DNA of 64,000 bases from Neomesorhizobium albiziae (GTDB lineage: Bacteria > Pseudomonadota > Alphaproteobacteria > Rhizobiales > Rhizobiaceae), in the NCBI RefSeq assembly GCF_900114255.1, contig NZ_FOSL01000004.1, positions 124,001 through 188,000 on the forward strand, written 5' to 3'. The notes beneath the pieces are model-generated. The model saw only the letters and a list, made by a program, of their open reading frames with translations. It ran no database searches and was not told where the DNA came from. Positions within the stretch are counted from its first letter, which is position 1; the number at the start of each line of letters is the position of its first letter. The translations under genes were made by a program, and so were the position numbers. Shown here piece after piece: positions 2,132 through 9,264 of the stretch.

Positions 2132-2737
2132 CTATGCCCAGGGCCGGCTTTCGGCGTTGCGCTTCTCGAAGCTGGCGATCGCCGGGGCCTTCTCGAGCGT
2201 CAGGCCGATGTCGTCGAGCCCGTTCAGCAGGCAATGCCGCTTGAAGTCGTCGAGCTCGAACTTGATCATGCCGCCATCGGGACCGCGGATTTCCATAACT
2301 TCGAGATCGACTGAGACAGTGGCGTTGGCGCCGCGCTCGGCATCGTCCATCAGCTTGTCTAGGTTTTCCTGGCTGACGGTGATCGGCAAGATGCCGTTCT
2401 TGAAGCAGTTGTTGTAGAAGATGTCGGCGAACGAGGTGGAAATCACGCAGCGGATGCCGAAATCGAGCAACGCCCAAGGCGCATGCTCGCGGCTCGAACC
2501 GCAGCCGAAATTGTCGCCGGCAACGAGGATCTGCGCGTTGCGGTAGGCCGGCTTGTTGAGCACGAAGTCGGGGTTTTCCGAGCCGTCGTCGTTGTAGCGC
2601 ATCTCTGCGAAAAGGCCGGTGCCGAGACCGGTTCGTTTGATGGTCTTGAGATAATCCTTGGGAATGATCATGTCGGTGTCGACATTGACGATCGGCAAGG
2701 GCGCCGCGACGCCGGTGAGTTTGGTGAACTTTTCCAT
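2132..2737 (-). CDS. leuD: 3-isopropylmalate dehydratase small subunit
   Basis: LeuD pairs with LeuC to isomerise 2-isopropylmalate to 3-isopropylmalate. The 201-residue length is standard. Diagnostic stretches are [20 protein letters not shown] near the start and [17 protein letters not shown] around residues 73-90, the swivelling-domain signature. leuC is not in the window; leuB follows downstream with two genes between. A hairpin at 2803-2828 separates leuD from the gene upstream of it, so leuD probably starts its own transcript. Confidence 0.96.
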
Positions 2738-2802
2738 GGCTTTTCTGCCCGTCGATTTTCCGAAAATTCGGCCTACGCTTTACACAAGGATGGCTGCAAA
2801 GC

Positions 2803-2828
2803 AAAGGGCGGCTTTTTAGCCGCCCTTT
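2803..2828 (-). terminator. intrinsic terminator after the 3.2 kb small gene
   Basis: A perfect 10-bp stem (AAAGGGCGGC / GCCGCCCTTT) with a 6-base loop, lying 6 bases past the stop of the minus-strand gene at 2835-3266 and upstream of leuD. The following sequence is only moderately T-rich in the minus direction. Confidence 0.7.
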
Positions 2829-2834
2829 GAAACG

Positions 2835-3266
2835 TCAGGCCCTGTGAAGCGTCATCACGCCGGTTTCGGTGCCGGTCAGCCGCCGCGAGCGTCCGTCGGC
2901 TCCCACCACCATCTGCACGCGCCGCCGCTCGGCGGCGAAATGCTGCGAGGTGGAGGCGTTCACCGGCGGATTGAAAGCAACGGTCACGCGCCACAGATCG
3001 GGCTTGATCGTTTCTTCCAGGCCGATGACGCGGCCGTGCGCCGGGGCGCCGTTGAAAGTGCCGGACACCTTTTCACCAACAGCAAAGGGGACGGAGGTTC
3101 CCTCCGTCGCCGGACGCGCGGCAAGCGTGTTCCAGTCGCGCGCGCCGTTCTGCCTGGCGACGAGTTCCAGTGCCTTGGTATGGGACACGGTTATGCCATC
3201 GGCAGCCAGTGCGTCGCGCAGCTTGCGGGCATGATTCTTGTAGTCGGATGACAATTCTCTGGTCAT
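2835..3266 (-). CDS. glyoxalase-superfamily-associated small protein
   Basis: A 143-residue soluble protein with no signal peptide. The N-terminal 50 residues (KNHARKLRDALAADGITVSH, then ALELVARQNGARDWNTLAA) match a module I recognise from proteins annotated as glyoxalase-related. The C-terminal half (residues 60-143) is basic and beta-rich with no metal-binding motif visible. It is monocistronic: a terminator follows and the next gene upstream is 250 bases away. The family link comes from memory of the N-terminal pattern; enzymatic activity should not be assumed. Confidence 0.55.
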   Translation of the reverse strand: MTRELSSDYKNHARKLRDALAADGITVSHTKALELVARQNGARDWNTLAARPATEGTSVPFAVGEKVSGTFNGAPAHGRVIGLEETIKPDLWRVTVAFNPPVNASTSQHFAAERRRVQMVVGADGRSRRLTGTETGVMTLHRA

Positions 3267-3522
3267 CGTGGTTCGCTCCTTCGCGTTATGCGAACGGCTT
3301 GTTTCGAACGGGGCCCGCTTTGCCGTTTCGGCCGTCGCATCGACAGGGGAAACGAACTTTTCAAGAGGAAGCTTTACCAGAGCCTTGCGGCCGCGGACGG
3401 CAGGGGCTTCCCGCCCAGGCCGCGCAGATAGTGATTCGACGGCATTGCGTCAATGGCAGCATGCGCCACCCCGAACCCCGGCCTGCCATGGGCGTGTGTC
3501 GACGTGCCTCGACCGAGCGGAA

Positions 3523-5397
3523 CTATACGATCGGCGCTGGTGTCGACCGCATCTCGATGCTCCATTTCCGCAGCTTGCCGACATCGGCTCTGACGCGGTC
3601 GGAGACGTTCAGTGTCCAGTTGCCTTTGATCGGCTGGCCAACCATGCTGCTCAAGACACCGCCGGGCGTCGCGGAATCATAGGTCGCCACCAGATTGTCG
3701 GTGGATCCACCAAGCTGGGGATGCAGGACCGTGCTGCGGCCGGCCGGTGATGTCAGGGCCACCCGAAGGTCGCCGATAAAAGTGTGCTGGATATCGACGG
3801 AGACCTTGATCTGGGCAACCGTCCCGGATTTGGCAATCGCAATCGCGCTGGAAATGCCGGCCGTTCGATTGTCGGGGATGGACACCATCGGGTTTGCGTC
3901 GCCTGCAACGACCACATCGGGTTGCGCCGTTCCGACCTTGAATTTGATGATCTGGCCCGGCGCCGAAATGTCGGAGATGATCAGTCCGGAATCGCGGCCG
4001 TCCCATTCCCGCGAATTCGGTGAGGACGTGGCGGAGAGCGCGATGCCGGCGACCGCCGAATAGAGATCGTCGCCGTCACCCTGGTTGGCGTCGCGTTCGA
4101 GGTCCTGGCGACCGTCGGCCTGCAACAAAGCGCATTGATAATGTTTCGCGGCGGTTCCTTGCTGGAATTCGTTCGAGCCAAGGGTATCGCAGTGATAGAC
4201 GGCGAGCCCGCTCGCCGGCAGGCCACGGTCGAGTTCCATCCTCGATCGGTTCTCGACCAGAAAATATTCGTTGGGCTTGGACGTGCGGTACTTCATCACC
4301 GTGTTGTAGTCGCCCTGGCTCGCTTCCTGGGGGGCGGCGGTACTCAGGTCGATCTCGTTGTCGCACCAGCCGGCGAGGTCGCGCAGATAAGCGCATACCG
4401 GTGATGGGCTGCGTCCGTTGTCGTTGTGGTTTCCCGACCCCATCAGGCAATAACTACCGATGCCGGAACTCTTAACGCTGTCGCCATCGCGTTCGCCATA
4501 GTCGTACATGTCGGGAAAACGGCACAGAAGATGCCCGTTCTCGTGGCAGAAAGTGCCGATGCTGAGATCGGCCGGCGTGCGGCCGAGGCTGGTCAGCAGA
4601 TAGAGGTCGGTGCGCATCGTGCCGAAACGCAGGTCGATGTGGAAGTTGTGCGGCCATAATTCGCCGCGATACTGAGTCTGGCCCGCATACATCACGTTCA
4701 AGGCGTCGACGACGTTCTCGTTGCGGGAATCGAATTGCTTGAGGTTCAGCCCGGACGCCACGGCAAGTTGCAGCGCCTCCTCCACCAACAGGTTGTTGAC
4801 GTAGAATTCCCGGTTCCTGCTCAAGGTGAAAGGACCGACGACGACGTTGGCGTAGTCGAGCTTTCCGCTGGATACGCGCTCGAAATACTTCTTGGCGGAG
4901 CTTATGTTGCCGTTGCGCGTAAAATTGGCGCCGTTCAGCATGTCGTCGACATCGGCGCGCGTGACGGTGCTCGCCAGGTCCTTGAAGTTGACCAGGATCG
5001 TCAAGCCCTTGACGGCGCCTACCGAAAGTATCCGCCCTTCGAGCAAACCCTGATGGGGCCCGAACGTGAGCGCCCTGGCCTCTTCCCGGTGGCCGCCGGC
5101 CATGGCGGAACGGCGCATCATGCGCGCTTTTGCACGCGCGACCACGGTGTCCTGCGATTCCTGCAAATGGCGGGCCAGGTAGTCCGGCGCCCGCTTCGAG
5201 AGCGCTATTCCGGTAGAACGGAAGCTTCCCGCGGAGAGCCGGGCGTAACAAAAGAGGCCCAACTCGTCGTCGTAGACCGTGGAGTATCCATCCAGGTTCT
5301 CATAGCGCGCATAGTGCTCGTCGCCGAACACCCGAAGGGCGATGTCGGGTCCTTTTGCCTGCCCAAACGTCAGGACTTCACCAAATATCGCGCTCAT
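3523..5397 (-). CDS. M6 family (immune inhibitor A-like) metalloprotease with P domain
   Basis: A 624-residue zinc metalloprotease. Residues 10-65 are a propeptide-like module (GDEHYARYENLDGYSTVYDD). The catalytic domain spans about 115-490 with HENGH at 285-289, followed by RFPDMYDYG, the M6 signature. Residues 500-620 are a P/Homo B domain as in proprotein convertases (IGDLRVALTSPAGR, GNWTLNVSD). The ATG at 5397 is chosen because AAGGAGGAGTGAGG precedes it; the frame stays open further upstream but overlaps the preceding gene. No Sec or Tat signal is visible, odd for a family usually secreted. The preceding small gene ends 5 bases upstream, so the two are surely co-transcribed. Confidence 0.88.
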   Translation of the reverse strand: MSAIFGEVLTFGQAKGPDIALRVFGDEHYARYENLDGYSTVYDDELGLFCYARLSAGSFRSTGIALSKRAPDYLARHLQESQDTVVARAKARMMRRSAMAGGHREEARALTFGPHQGLLEGRILSVGAVKGLTILVNFKDLASTVTRADVDDMLNGANFTRNGNISSAKKYFERVSSGKLDYANVVVGPFTLSRNREFYVNNLLVEEALQLAVASGLNLKQFDSRNENVVDALNVMYAGQTQYRGELWPHNFHIDLRFGTMRTDLYLLTSLGRTPADLSIGTFCHENGHLLCRFPDMYDYGERDGDSVKSSGIGSYCLMGSGNHNDNGRSPSPVCAYLRDLAGWCDNEIDLSTAAPQEASQGDYNTVMKYRTSKPNEYFLVENRSRMELDRGLPASGLAVYHCDTLGSNEFQQGTAAKHYQCALLQADGRQDLERDANQGDGDDLYSAVAGIALSATSSPNSREWDGRDSGLIISDISAPGQIIKFKVGTAQPDVVVAGDANPMVSIPDNRTAGISSAIAIAKSGTVAQIKVSVDIQHTFIGDLRVALTSPAGRSTVLHPQLGGSTDNLVATYDSATPGGVLSSMVGQPIKGNWTLNVSDRVRADVGKLRKWSIEMRSTPAPIV

Positions 5398-5401
5398 TTC
5401 C

Positions 5402-5740
5402 TCACTCCTCCTTTGGCGCGGCGTGCGACCGTTGCTCCATCTGCTGCGTGCGATCCCGGATCTTTCGGGTCCTGACTTCGTCGGACTCGGCGGCGTGCCG
5501 TTCCACACCCGGCGGAGGCGGCGACGCGACAGACACGCCCGTCGAGACAAACCTGCCCTCGACCACCAGCGCATAGCAAAACAGCCCAAGCGCCTCATCG
5601 TAGATGGCCGGGAATCCGTCAGGGGTTTCGTAAGAGGCGTAGAGTTCGGTGCCGTTGACGATGAGGTCTACGTCCGGACCGTTGGCCTGTCCCATGGAGG
5701 CCTTTTCGCGAAACGCACCGACCATCGGACAGTCCCTCAC
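5402..5740 (-). CDS. stand-alone copy of the M6 protease N-terminal module
   Basis: A 112-residue protein whose residues 16-68 align without gaps to residues 11-63 of the downstream M6 protease, with about 30 of 53 positions identical (shared GQA.GPD, E.YA.YE..DG, YD..LGLFCYA, STG). The rest is a charged, proline-containing tail (SPPPPGVERHAAESDEVRTR). No protease domain follows and no signal peptide is seen. Alternative starts are the methionines at residues 6 and 16. It is translated just upstream of the protease. It could be a split-off propeptide acting in trans as chaperone or inhibitor; that is inference. Confidence 0.75.
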   Translation of the reverse strand: MRDCPMVGAFREKASMGQANGPDVDLIVNGTELYASYETPDGFPAIYDEALGLFCYALVVEGRFVSTGVSVASPPPPGVERHAAESDEVRTRKIRDRTQQMEQRSHAAPKEE

Positions 5741-5776
5741 AATCTGCCGCTATTCGGCACAATATTCGCGTCGTAA

Positions 5777-5805
5777 AATATCATCCCAGACAATTTCCAT
5801 GTCAA
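5777..5805 (-). promoter_or_regulatory. sigma70-type promoter for the M6 protease pair
   Basis: On the minus strand, TTGACA at 5805-5800 and GATATT at 5782-5777 are separated by exactly 17 bases in an AT-rich stretch. Initiation would fall near 5770, about 30 bases before the first start codon of the small gene at 5740. The match to a canonical housekeeping promoter is unusually good for an alphaproteobacterium. Confidence 0.65.
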
Positions 5806-6017
5806 TTCAAATATATTTTCAGGTTATTCTTACGCAACGAAATGATTTTAAAGTATGCATGAAGGGAATTGTATGAGATTTTCATGGTGAACGATGGCAA
5901 AGACTGGCGATCCGTAACCTTGGCCTCGATCGATTCTCCTGGCTTCGCAGCATAGGGTTCATAACCCGCGATCCAGCGATCGGAGCCGCCGATGGCGTGA
6001 GTCGGGGACGCGCCGGG

Positions 6018-8039
6018 TTAGTTGCCGCTGAACAACCGGCCGATGTTGGATCCGTTGCGCTGGTCTTCGACCCGGCGATTGATGATCCGCGTTCCGAACA
6101 AATGCGAGGCGACGCCAAGGGCCAGTATGGCGAGCGAACTGCCCGCACCAGGCAGCAGGAGATTGGCTGCCCCCGAGAGCAGGCCCGTCAACGGGTTCGT
6201 GGCAGGCACCTCCGTGCTTTCCATGGTTTGAACCGGTGCCGATGCCTGTTGAGCCGGATTGGATCGCAGATACAGCCTGTCCAGGTCGTTGATCTTGACT
6301 ACGGCACTGTTGGTCTGAGCGGTGTTGAGGCCGAAAAAAGACCGGTATTCGCTCGACGCGAACGGGCTCATCGCATGGGCAATCTGCTGGTCGACCGGCG
6401 CGGTGATAGTGGTGGCCGTGGGCGATGGTCGCGGAGGCGGCTGCTGGGCGCCGGTTCCCATATATTCGTTCAAGGCAAAATTACCCAGGCCCAACGCCCC
6501 AAGCAGGGACGTAATCTTCGCGACCAGATTGGACCGGTCAGCGTTCGCTATGATCTGCGAACCTTTCTTTCGCAGATCGTCGGCTGTAGCGGTCAAGCGA
6601 CCTTCGGCGAGCGGACGCCCCGGCGCGTCGCGCAACGCCGCCCAGGTCGCGGCATCGACCGAGCCGATAGTGTCGGTGGCGACCTTGTAGTCGAGCTGGA
6701 ATGCCGACACCGCCCCGGCGGTCAGCGAACCATAGACCCCGTCGATCGTACCGACCTGATAGTTGCGCCGGCTCAGCGCCTCCTGCAGCGCACTGACGGC
6801 TGGTCCCCGATCTCCCGGCTTGAGCACGGGTTCTGGGATCTGCTGCGGCATGGACGAACCGCTGAGTTTTTGCATAAGCATCTCGAAGAGTTTGTTGATG
6901 TCGGTCGGCTGCTCGAAGACCGGACCTGGAATGGGAACGTCATCAGAAAATGTGCCACGAGCATCGTAAGCCCCAAGGATTGCACCCGCGCTGACGGACA
7001 CAAGACTGGCCCATTCATTGCGAAGACCAGTGATGTCCCGGCCCCTGCGCTTGATCAGCGCCACGGCCAGACGGTCCTGCAACTGGGCCGAATAAAGCTC
7101 GCTTCCCGACAGTCCGAGCTCTTTCCTCAGGCCTCGCAAGGTCTTCCGCACGATCTGATAACGACCCAGCGCGGATGAGTTGAAGTTGTTGGCCGGATGG
7201 TCGAGCATTGCGGTTTGCAGCGCGTCGATCTGATCCAGCGACATCAGGGTCAAGGTCTTCTCGCCGCCTGAAAACCGCCCATAGCCGAGCGATGTGTCAT
7301 ATCCGCGCCCGGGACGATGGGCGGTTCCTTCATGACCGGCGATGAAATCTAGAAACGGACGGAAGCGCGCAACCTGGCTCATGTCGACCATCGAATCGGT
7401 CTCCCACAAATCGTCGTTGACATCGAAGACCGACAGCGGGTCGGTCTCCGGGGCAATGGATCCACTTTCTTCTTCGAATTCCGCAATCAGGGTCTCGTCG
7501 AAGCCCCTGACAGTCGATGTATCGATGCCGCGGGCCAGTTCCTGGGGCGACACATCGATATGGAAATGCATCGCATCTTTTTTTTTCACCCAGTCCCCGC
7601 CCCAGCCGAACAGTCGGTTCTTGCCGAGCGTGCGAACGGCGAGGACATCCTCGATCATTTCGATCGGCATGTCGGTATCGGCGGCGTTTATCGAAACGTC
7701 ATGCGCGCGCTCTATTTGGGTCGCCTTTTTCGAAAACCACACCTTTCGATGGTTAGGCGTTTTCCTGACAGGATTTGTGTCGGCGTTGACGTCTATGGCG
7801 ATACCGAATGCGTGGAGGCTCCGCGTCGTCGTTTCGGCTATGTTCCTGGGGAAATACCCATGTGTATGTTCAGATCGAATAATATAATTATGCGCGTTCA
7901 TAATTGCTTCGAGCGCACTCCAGGCCGCAACAGTCGGCCGTGCGACACGAATTATTGCTGGACCGAAGGAGATTTCGGTCATCAGGTCTTCGTTGCTGTC
8001 GTAAGCTTTCCAGACTCGGCGTTGCTCAGACTCGCTCAA
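6018..8039 (-). CDS. modular cell-wall hydrolase: M15 peptidase, phage-type muramidase, PG-binding domain
   Basis: A 673-residue protein. Residues 45-165 form an M15 (VanY-like) D,D-carboxypeptidase domain with LHAFGIAIDVN at 75-85 and MHFHID at 157-162. Residues 226-340 resemble phage GH104-like muramidases (FIAGHEG with Glu237; ALGRYQIV at 290-297; QDRLAVALI). Residues 405-470 are a PG_binding_1 repeat (GDRGPAVSALQEAL, GVYGSLT). A Pro/Ala/Thr-rich linker leads to one hydrophobic segment at about 625-649 and a basic tail. The start is TTG at 8039, supported by GGAGG five bases upstream. No N-terminal signal is visible. A run of nine A sits in codons 152-154. The architecture suggests an endolysin or effector. 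Confidence 0.82.
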   Translation of the reverse strand: MSESEQRRVWKAYDSNEDLMTEISFGPAIIRVARPTVAAWSALEAIMNAHNYIIRSEHTHGYFPRNIAETTTRSLHAFGIAIDVNADTNPVRKTPNHRKVWFSKKATQIERAHDVSINAADTDMPIEMIEDVLAVRTLGKNRLFGWGGDWVKKKDAMHFHIDVSPQELARGIDTSTVRGFDETLIAEFEEESGSIAPETDPLSVFDVNDDLWETDSMVDMSQVARFRPFLDFIAGHEGTAHRPGRGYDTSLGYGRFSGGEKTLTLMSLDQIDALQTAMLDHPANNFNSSALGRYQIVRKTLRGLRKELGLSGSELYSAQLQDRLAVALIKRRGRDITGLRNEWASLVSVSAGAILGAYDARGTFSDDVPIPGPVFEQPTDINKLFEMLMQKLSGSSMPQQIPEPVLKPGDRGPAVSALQEALSRRNYQVGTIDGVYGSLTAGAVSAFQLDYKVATDTIGSVDAATWAALRDAPGRPLAEGRLTATADDLRKKGSQIIANADRSNLVAKITSLLGALGLGNFALNEYMGTGAQQPPPRPSPTATTITAPVDQQIAHAMSPFASSEYRSFFGLNTAQTNSAVVKINDLDRLYLRSNPAQQASAPVQTMESTEVPATNPLTGLLSGAANLLLPGAGSSLAILALGVASHLFGTRIINRRVEDQRNGSNIGRLFSGN

Positions 8040-8382
8040 GTTTGCCTCCGGCTACCTATGCAAACAAGTCTGGATGATAGATAAAATACCTATCTCAGTT
8101 TTGTTGTCCTGATCAATAACATACGATCATATCATCTTATAAAGGACTTGTTCTGTTAATCTCTTCACATGTAGAGTGGAAAACAATCGTGATTTAAAGT
8201 ATGAGAAGCCAAGAATTTCGATCTGAAACCGGGACCGCCTGTTCTCGGCTAATCCGGAAGGTTGGGGGATGACGCCGCCCCCGCTTTAACATGAGAGTGG
8301 CCCGGCCGCGTCCGGTTCGCAGAAAGCCCGGCGGCGGAGGCAACCACTTGCACGGCTGGCGCTGGCAAGGCAAGAAGACCCC
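8040..8382. other. AT-rich intergenic region between divergent genes
   Basis: A 343-base gap between the minus-strand hydrolase and the plus-strand lyase gene. Bases 8085-8215 are visibly AT-rich, unlike the surrounding DNA. It must hold the promoters for both directions, but no convincing -35/-10 pair or operator was identified, and no ORF or RNA fold was seen. Confidence 0.5.
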
Positions 8383-9264
8383 ATGATGCCAGACAAGATG
8401 AGATTGCGCCGCTCCGTGCTTTATGTCCCGGCTTCAAACGGTAAGGCGCTGGCGAAACTTCCGACGCTTGCCTGCGACGCCGCCATCATCGATCTCGAAG
8501 ATGCGGTCGCACCACAAGACAAGATTTCCGCGCGCGAGAGCCTGCCTGGTCTTTTCGCGGAACGGGCTGCCGGCCCGCGGGAACTTGTCATCCGCGTCAA
8601 TCCGCTTTCCGGCGAATGGGGCGCCGACGACCTTCAAGCCGCACTTGCCTGCGCGCCAGACGGCATCCTCTTGCCCAAGGTGGAGACGCCGCGCGACATT
8701 CTTGAAGCCGGCGATGTGCTTGACGACAACGACGCTGCCGACACGCTGCGGCTCTGGGCAATGGTGGAGACGCCGCGGGCGCTTCTCAACATCGGCGCCA
8801 TCGCCGAACTCGGGCGCGATCCGGCTTCGCGGCTCGCCTGCCTGGTTGCCGGAACCAACGACCTGGTCAAGGAAACTCGCATTCTCGCGACGCCTGACCG
8901 GCGTTATCTCATGCCGTGGCTGATGCAGATGGTGCTGGCGGCGCGCGCCGGCGGCCTCGACATACTCGACGGCGTCAGCAACGATTTCCGAGATGCGGAG
9001 GCCTTCGCCGCAGAGTGCGCAGTGGCAGCCGCGATGGGTTTCGACGGCAAGACGCTCATCCACCCCAATCAGATCGAGCCGGCAAACGTGGCCTTTTCGC
9101 CGTCTTCGGAAGCACTTGACGAAGCCCGCGAAATCGTCGCCGCCTTCGCAGTGGCTGAAAATGTAGGCAAGGGCGTGATCGCACTCGGCGGCAGGATGAT
9201 CGAACGCCTGCATCTCCAGCAGGCCGAAAATTTGCTTGCGAAGGCAGCTTCGATCGGAAAATGA
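8383..9264 (+). CDS. HpcH/HpaI aldolase/citrate lyase (CitE-like CoA-ester lyase) family protein
   Basis: A 293-residue TIM-barrel lyase of the CitE/MclA family, which cleaves or forms C-C bonds in (acyl)malyl- or citramalyl-CoA esters using Mg2+. Signatures are RRSVLYVPASNGKAL near the start, DAAIIDLEDAVAPQDK at about 30-45 (acidic metal ligands), LPKVETPRDI, and FDGKTLIHPNQIEPAN. No CitD or CitF partner is nearby, so a stand-alone CoA-ester lyase is more likely than citrate lyase. Start could be 8383, 8386 or 8398; no strong Shine-Dalgarno decides. The substrate cannot be told from sequence. Confidence 0.85.
   Translation: MMPDKMRLRRSVLYVPASNGKALAKLPTLACDAAIIDLEDAVAPQDKISARESLPGLFAERAAGPRELVIRVNPLSGEWGADDLQAALACAPDGILLPKVETPRDILEAGDVLDDNDAADTLRLWAMVETPRALLNIGAIAELGRDPASRLACLVAGTNDLVKETRILATPDRRYLMPWLMQMVLAARAGGLDILDGVSNDFRDAEAFAAECAVAAAMGFDGKTLIHPNQIEPANVAFSPSSEALDEAREIVAAFAVAENVGKGVIALGGRMIERLHLQQAENLLAKAASIGK

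What the first reader, a model, noticed from the sequence alone, without database searches (positions are those of the whole stretch)
5402..5740. Stand-alone duplicate of the M6 protease N-terminal module, translated just before the protease
The 112-residue product aligns without gaps to protease residues 11-63, with about 30 of 53 identical, but has no catalytic domain. The two genes are 5 bases apart. A free propeptide-like domain co-expressed with its protease suggests a trans-acting inhibitor, chaperone or immunity protein. A decayed tandem duplicate of the protease is the alternative, but the frame is intact and has its own promoter and a strong Shine-Dalgarno for the next gene.
Basis: partly seen in the sequence, partly recalled or inferred. 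Interest (0 to 1): 0.65.

Follow-up and report, generated by a model that had tools for sequence, protein, structure and literature searches.

The report
Free copy of a protease's propeptide
Just before the gene for a protein-cutting enzyme sits a small gene that makes a separate copy of that enzyme's own front piece, and because the same two-gene pair is preserved in a distantly related bacterium, the small protein is probably a working partner, most likely a brake, of the enzyme rather than a leftover.

Summary
On the minus strand, a 107-codon ORF (ATG at 5725, stop at 5402) is followed after 4 bases by a 624-residue M6-type metalloprotease (5397-3523).

The pair is not unique. Ca. Accumulibacter contiguus (Betaproteobacteria; the window looks alphaproteobacterial) has the same two genes: same small-gene length, ATG and 4-base gap, 67% identical small protein, 80% identical protease. 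The two small proteins form one clade and the two protease N-termini another, so the duplication predates the split. dN/dS of the small gene is about 0.16, so neutral decay is out. Elsewhere I saw the module only fused to M6 proteases; a free copy turned up in just these two genomes.

AlphaFold gives the small protein a confident fold of strands plus a C-terminal helix (pLDDT 88). The protease model failed (pLDDT 39), so contact with the catalytic cleft is untested.

Best reading: a free propeptide-like regulator, most likely a trans-inhibitor, of the signal-less protease beside it, analogous to stand-alone propeptide inhibitors of subtilases (MEROPS I9; malaria SUB1-ProM) and cathepsins. Inhibition is inferred, not shown.

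The parts
5402..5725 (-). Small gene: 107-aa free copy of the M6 N-terminal module (ATG 5725, TGA 5402-5404); GTG 5740 is an in-frame alternative start that is less likely
   Evidence: AF2 model pLDDT 87.9
3523..5397 (-). M6-type metalloprotease, 624 aa, no recognisable signal peptide; N-terminal module (1-~100), catalytic domain, C-terminal P domain
   Evidence: TIGR03296 E 1.7e-50; PF05547 E 5e-6 and PF01483 E 2.7e-19; hydropathy
5098..5397 (-). Fused copy of the module at the protease N-terminus (residues 1-100)
4192..5001 (-). M6 catalytic domain (protease residues 133-402)
4510..4545 (-). Zinc motif HENGHLLCRFPD (residues 285-296); H285, E286, H289 and D296 invariant in the four and in the seven proteases aligned
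   Evidence: reading as zinc ligands is recalled M6/Asp-zincin knowledge
3553..3816 (-). Proprotein convertase P domain (residues 528-615)
5407..5413 (-). AAGGAGG Shine-Dalgarno for the protease, inside the end of the small gene; stop and next start are 4 bases apart
5777..5805 (-). Sigma-70-like promoter match upstream of the small gene (not above chance by number)

Best explanation
The small protein is a free-standing, propeptide-derived regulator of the M6 protease translated right after it. Shown: it is an old duplicate of the protease N-terminal module, kept intact as part of a two-gene cassette in two distantly related bacteria, and predicted to fold by itself. Inferred: the module acts as a propeptide in M6 proteases; the free copy binds the catalytic domain in trans, most likely as an inhibitor made before the enzyme so that a protease without export signal cannot harm the cell; translational coupling keeps the two in step. 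A folding-chaperone role of the same binding is possible.
For: Homology over the whole module and a confident fold of its own, pLDDT 87.9. The same pair, order, 4-base spacing and small-gene length in Ca. Accumulibacter contiguus. Purifying selection: dN 0.222, dS 1.39 for the small gene versus dN 0.136, dS 1.71 for the protease, so similar age. Free copies form one clade (97/99), pair proteases another (88/91). 18 of 22 columns invariant in seven fused modules (five lineages, two of them as near-identical pairs) are kept in both free copies. In four secreted M6 relatives the module follows the signal peptide and precedes the catalytic domain, i.e. stands in propeptide position (L022, L023, L029, L034, judged by eye). 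Ten M6 proteins, own included, show no signal-peptide-like start by a crude hydropathy scan, while two signal-bearing controls do. Precedent: stand-alone propeptide-like inhibitors of subtilases, one encoded next to subtilase genes (PMC6993865, abstract and passages read).
Against: Only two genomes have the free copy; near relatives of the protease do without it. Four columns invariant in the fused modules are changed in both free copies (D26T, R31S/T, Y38F, L78A/V), and an always-aromatic position 24 became N or R; if these residues form the enzyme interface, the free copy may bind differently or not at all. No structure of the protease-module contact could be obtained. The propeptide role of this module is itself not demonstrated here. 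Fold search gave no solved structure with meaningful similarity.
Confidence: 0.5

Rival explanations
1. Trans-acting folding chaperone: the free module helps the catalytic domain fold and is not a physiological inhibitor.
For: It is translated immediately before the protease with likely coupling; in mesophilic bacterial subtilases the propeptide is both chaperone and inhibitor (PMC10580911, start of abstract in the search listing only).
Against: The protease already carries its own copy of the module in cis, at least as well conserved (pN/pS 0.18 over residues 1-107 against 0.30 for the free copy), so a second chaperone looks redundant.
Confidence: 0.17
2. The module is a binding or targeting domain, not a propeptide; the free copy is an adaptor, a decoy or a subunit that pairs with the fused copy.
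For: The changes in the free copies (aromatic 24 to N/R, D26T, R31S/T) would fit a domain that no longer packs on a catalytic domain; no clear match to a solved fold points to an inhibitor.
Against: Its place between signal peptide and catalytic domain in four secreted M6 proteases is the propeptide place.
Confidence: 0.2
3. Antidote of a toxic protease: the pair is a mobile toxin-immunity cassette and the free module protects the producer or siblings.
For: Patchy distribution, accessory position between leuD and a citE-like gene, recombinase- and transposase-like fragments around the Accumulibacter pair (by eye), a related M6 without free copy on a phage-like contig, no recognisable signal peptides.
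Against: No toxicity data; fused-only relatives without signal peptide have no free module, so it is not generally needed; no PADLOC match at E <= 0.1 for the small protein or the protease.
Confidence: 0.1
4. Truncated, functionless tandem duplicate of the protease gene.
For: It is clearly a duplicate without catalytic domain and free copies are rare.
Against: dN/dS about 0.16, pN/pS 0.30 (95% bootstrap 0.21-0.44), intact frame, start, end and coupling signal in two lineages separated by dS above 1.
Confidence: 0.03

Closest known systems
Stand-alone subtilisin propeptide-like inhibitors (MEROPS I9: Pleurotus peptidase A inhibitor 1, yeast peptidase B inhibitor, Arabidopsis subtilisin propeptide-like inhibitor 1; also TgMIC5 and Plasmodium SUB1-ProM)
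   Same: Small free protein that mimics a protease propeptide; SUB1-ProM is encoded beside subtilase genes (PMC6993865, abstract and passages read).
   Different: Those target serine proteases (S8) and the examples named in the passages read are eukaryotic; here the module belongs to a bacterial M6 metalloprotease, is a direct paralogue of the neighbour's N-terminus, and inhibition is untested.
Cathepsin propeptide-like inhibitors (MEROPS I29: plant SnuCalCp proteins; crammer of Drosophila)
   Same: Free homologue of a protease propeptide (PMC6010012 and PMC3551606, search listing only).
   Different: Cysteine proteases, eukaryotes; that the fold differs and that crammer is filed under I29 are recalled.
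M6 metalloproteases with N-terminal module (TIGR03296; P-domain members)
   Same: Same module, fused, ahead of the catalytic domain.
   Different: No free second copy: each of the fused-only genomes found with the module profiles gave one match.

Membership tests
M6 metalloprotease (neighbour gene) | Matches the M6 domain model above its curated cut-off | tested here: met
   TIGR03296 172.5 bits, cut-off 110.8; PF05547 26.4 bits, cut-off 22
M6 metalloprotease (neighbour gene) | HExxH zinc motif with downstream Asp | tested here: met
   H285, E286, H289, D296 invariant; ligand roles recalled
Secreted M6 metalloproteases (a subset of M6; export is usual but not required by the model) | Signal peptide | tested here: not met
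   No hydrophobic N-terminus: max 12-residue Kyte-Doolittle 1.33 versus 1.93 and 2.11 in two signal-bearing relatives; a crude test
M6 N-terminal (propeptide-position) module (small gene) | Homology to the module over its length | tested here: met
   43/103 identical, E 3e-23; profile E 2e-49 in own genome, but that profile contained the protein itself
M6 N-terminal (propeptide-position) module (small gene) | Cleaved off during zymogen activation | not testable with these tools
   needs an experiment
Stand-alone propeptide-type protease inhibitor | Own gene without catalytic domain, homologous to or mimicking a propeptide | tested here: met
   the propeptide function of the module itself is inferred
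Stand-alone propeptide-type protease inhibitor | Inhibits the cognate protease | not testable with these tools
   protease model failed; needs an assay
MEROPS I9 inhibitor | Subtilisin-propeptide fold | tested here: inconclusive
   [quoted passage not shown] Foldseek and VIA-align gave no clear match to anything

The most novel reading that the evidence does not exclude
A horizontally spreading two-gene cassette in which an unusual export-signal-less, intracellular or injected/lysis-released M6 metalloprotease is held in check by a free, separately encoded copy of its own propeptide: a propeptide turned into an antidote, for a metalloprotease and in bacteria.
Probability: 0.25. Interest if true: 0.7.

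Novelty: new variant of a known kind. Interest (0 to 1): 0.47.

Why it matters
It would extend the 'propeptide set free as regulator' principle, known for subtilases and cathepsins, to the M6 metalloproteases, give a natural protein inhibitor for this family, and point to a group of M6 proteases without export signal whose control inside the cell is unexplained. My full-text searches listed no paper on a stand-alone M6 propeptide (open-licence PubMed Central only, and only the 1 to 15 best listings of each were seen).

Tried and rejected
Neutral decay: rejected by dN/dS and by conservation in a second, distantly related bacterium.

Cysteine switch: a Cys in the module (C50) is invariant in the first six sequences, which suggested an MMP-like switch, but it is Ser in L027/L028 and Val or Glu in L021, L015, L016; dropped.

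A third free copy: weak hits were examined or set aside. G589 (E 0.0036, open frame 179, L042) lies antisense to a longer unrelated-looking ORF and is taken as spurious. Among the longer ORFs listed for L007 and L008 I saw no M6. L009, L010, L011, L036 and L043 (E 0.001-0.01, each with a stop inside) were not opened and are not counted as modules.

Wider searches that found nothing: plasmids by the small protein (it missed the Acaryochloris and Pseudoalteromonas modules, so it is insensitive), phages by small protein and protease, viral contigs by the module and by one distant protease, PHROGs for the small protein and protease, Pfam and NCBIfam for the small protein. Three protease-based scans of viral contigs returned one and the same contig. 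Fold search of the small protein: best Foldseek E 1.4, best VIA-align Z 3.2 (PH-domain-like and flagellin pieces), not meaningful. Solved structures by sequence: for the protease profile only the P-domain region of a serine protease, for the module profile weak hits to carboxyl transferases (E 0.46-0.5).

Structure of the protease: only three sequences were admissible for the alignment; pLDDT 39.4, not used.

Full report
What is there. The small gene and the protease gene are on the minus strand. The small ORF runs from 5740 (GTG) or, more likely, 5725 (ATG) to the stop at 5402. Four bases further on starts a 624-residue protease gene (5397-3523). BLASTP of the two proteins gives 43 of 103 identical residues, E 3e-23 for this single comparison. 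The protease matches the M6 domain model TIGR03296 (172.5 bits, cut-off 110.8) and, at its C-terminus, the P domain PF01483. The small protein matches no Pfam family up to E 10, no NCBIfam up to E 1, no PHROG up to E 0.01 and no PADLOC model up to E 0.1. Neither protein has a strongly hydrophobic N-terminus, whereas two Pseudoalteromonas relatives with signal peptides do (a crude hydropathy test). The protease's ribosome-binding site AAGGAGG (5407-5413) lies in the last codons of the small gene, so coupled translation is likely (inference).

It recurs. A scan of contigs of 84,980 species with the small protein gave 55 pattern matches, of which one encodes a relative: Candidatus Accumulibacter contiguus, contig NZ_SPMX01000084.1 (L013), 67% identical over residues 6-112 of the longer reading. 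There, too, a 107-aa gene (5001-5324) is followed after 4 bases by a 616-aa M6 protease (5329-7179), which is 80% identical to the window's (493 of 616 aligned residues). Clear DNA similarity begins at the ATG, which supports that start. The scan needs exact short peptide matches, so more distant free copies would be missed. L013 is from a metagenome bin and its assignment to the species was not checked; NCBI places the species in Betaproteobacteria. The window's own organism is not told. Its aconitase is closest, at 82-84%, to Shinella, Bosea, Sinorhizobium and Rhizobium among plasmid records, and its error-prone polymerase is closest to Sinorhizobium and Rhizobium, so it is taken as alphaproteobacterial (inference).

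Selection and age. Between window and L013, Nei-Gojobori estimates are dN 0.222, dS 1.39 for the small gene and dN 0.136, dS 1.71 for the protease. pN/pS is 0.30 for the small gene (bootstrap 95% 0.21-0.44) and 0.185 for the protease (0.157-0.221). So the small gene is constrained, less tightly than the protease, and both genes diverged over a like time; with dS above 1 the estimates are rough. In a tree of 14 modules the two free copies form one group (97/99) and the two pair proteases another (88/91); deeper branching is unresolved and several branches are long. The duplication is therefore older than the split of the two lineages. 18 of 22 columns invariant in seven fused modules (five lineages) are kept in both free copies; D26, R31, Y38 and L78 are changed in both, and an always-aromatic position 24 is N or R. 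These changes could mean a solvent-exposed face in the free protein or a different interface; I cannot tell which.

How widespread. Single-protein search of the same family: 8 of 394 genomes with a match at E <= 0.01, own included; besides the own pair only G034 and G132 are strong, each with one match in a long frame, i.e. fused; five are weak. With the module profile A1: 2 of 385 genomes of the class (own pair and G400), 2 of 398 of the phylum (own pair and G800), 3 of 4 named handles (Accumulibacter pair, G034, G132), 1 of 121 in the Accumulibacter family, 1 of 2 in the genus. With the broader profile A6: 11 of 303 genomes of the class of the Accumulibacter genome, where the Accumulibacter small gene is the only short intact frame, nine further genomes have frames of 514 to 1299 codons (four of these nine loci were opened: L027, L028, L029, L034), and G1420 is a weak match with stops; 4 of 372 in the own class: the own pair, G400 (fused), a match taken as spurious (G589) and one with a stop (G669). 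Samples of these calls overlap. Free copies were thus seen in two genomes only. Fused modules without a recognisable export signal also occur in an Acaryochloris plasmid and on an IMG/VR contig, next to a recombinase-like gene and terminase-like genes (named by eye). In four secreted M6 proteases (L022, L023, L029, L034) the module follows the signal peptide, which is where a propeptide would stand. The own genome has no other M6 above the model's cut-off, and one weak match below it.

Setting. In four relatives the genes leuD and the citE-like gene are 0.6 to 3.8 kb apart, while here 5.6 kb separate them and hold a glyoxalase-like gene, the protease, the small gene and an M15/endolysin-like gene. 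The same-genus genome G059 has other genes in this place and no module match. So the pair is accessory. The island's G+C does not stand out (protease 0.609, small gene 0.636, window 0.624). The L013 pair (0.559 against 0.603 for the rest of the locus) lies among recombinase- and transposase-like fragments (identified by eye). Horizontal acquisition is the simplest account (inference).

Structure. With five admissible sequences AlphaFold2 models the small protein at mean pLDDT 87.9: six strands, then one helix at 82-101; the five models range from 73 to 88. No solved structure is convincingly similar.

Mechanism. Free proteins resembling a propeptide are known as inhibitors of subtilases; the malaria protein SUB1-ProM is a potent inhibitor encoded beside subtilase genes (PMC6993865, abstract and passages read). 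By analogy the small protein most likely binds the catalytic domain of its neighbour and restrains it, with chaperoning as a main alternative. What is shown is homology, conservation as a pair, constraint and a predicted fold of its own. What is inferred is the propeptide role, the binding and the inhibition.

Verdict. A real, constrained free propeptide-like module kept together with an M6 protease in two distant bacteria: a new variant of a known kind of regulator, rare so far, with function untested.

Noticed in passing
window 6018-7958 (or 8039), minus strand: Large protein with M15 peptidase, endolysin-like and peptidoglycan-binding parts and a C-terminal hydrophobic stretch, directly upstream of the pair on the same strand; looks like a cell-wall-cutting enzyme without a signal peptide.
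   Followed up: partly
L024 5001-6488: An M6 protease without recognisable signal peptide, 51% identical to the window's over residues 1-489, on an IMG/VR contig between a recombinase-like gene and terminase-like genes: possibly a phage-borne M6 protease (neighbours named by eye).
   Followed up: partly
window 2737-8383: The interval between leuD and the citE-like gene is a variable site among relatives, 0.6-3.8 kb in four genomes against 5.6 kb here.
   Followed up: partly
L013 3790-4614, 7086-9915: Reverse-transcriptase-like, recombinase-like and transposase-like remnants flank the pair in Accumulibacter (recognised by eye).
   Followed up: no
L021, L015, L016, L027, L028, L005, L006: M6 proteases without recognisable export signal are spread over at least two phyla (Pseudomonadota and, in Acaryochloris, Cyanobacteriota); how they leave the cell or what they cut inside is unexplained.
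   Followed up: partly
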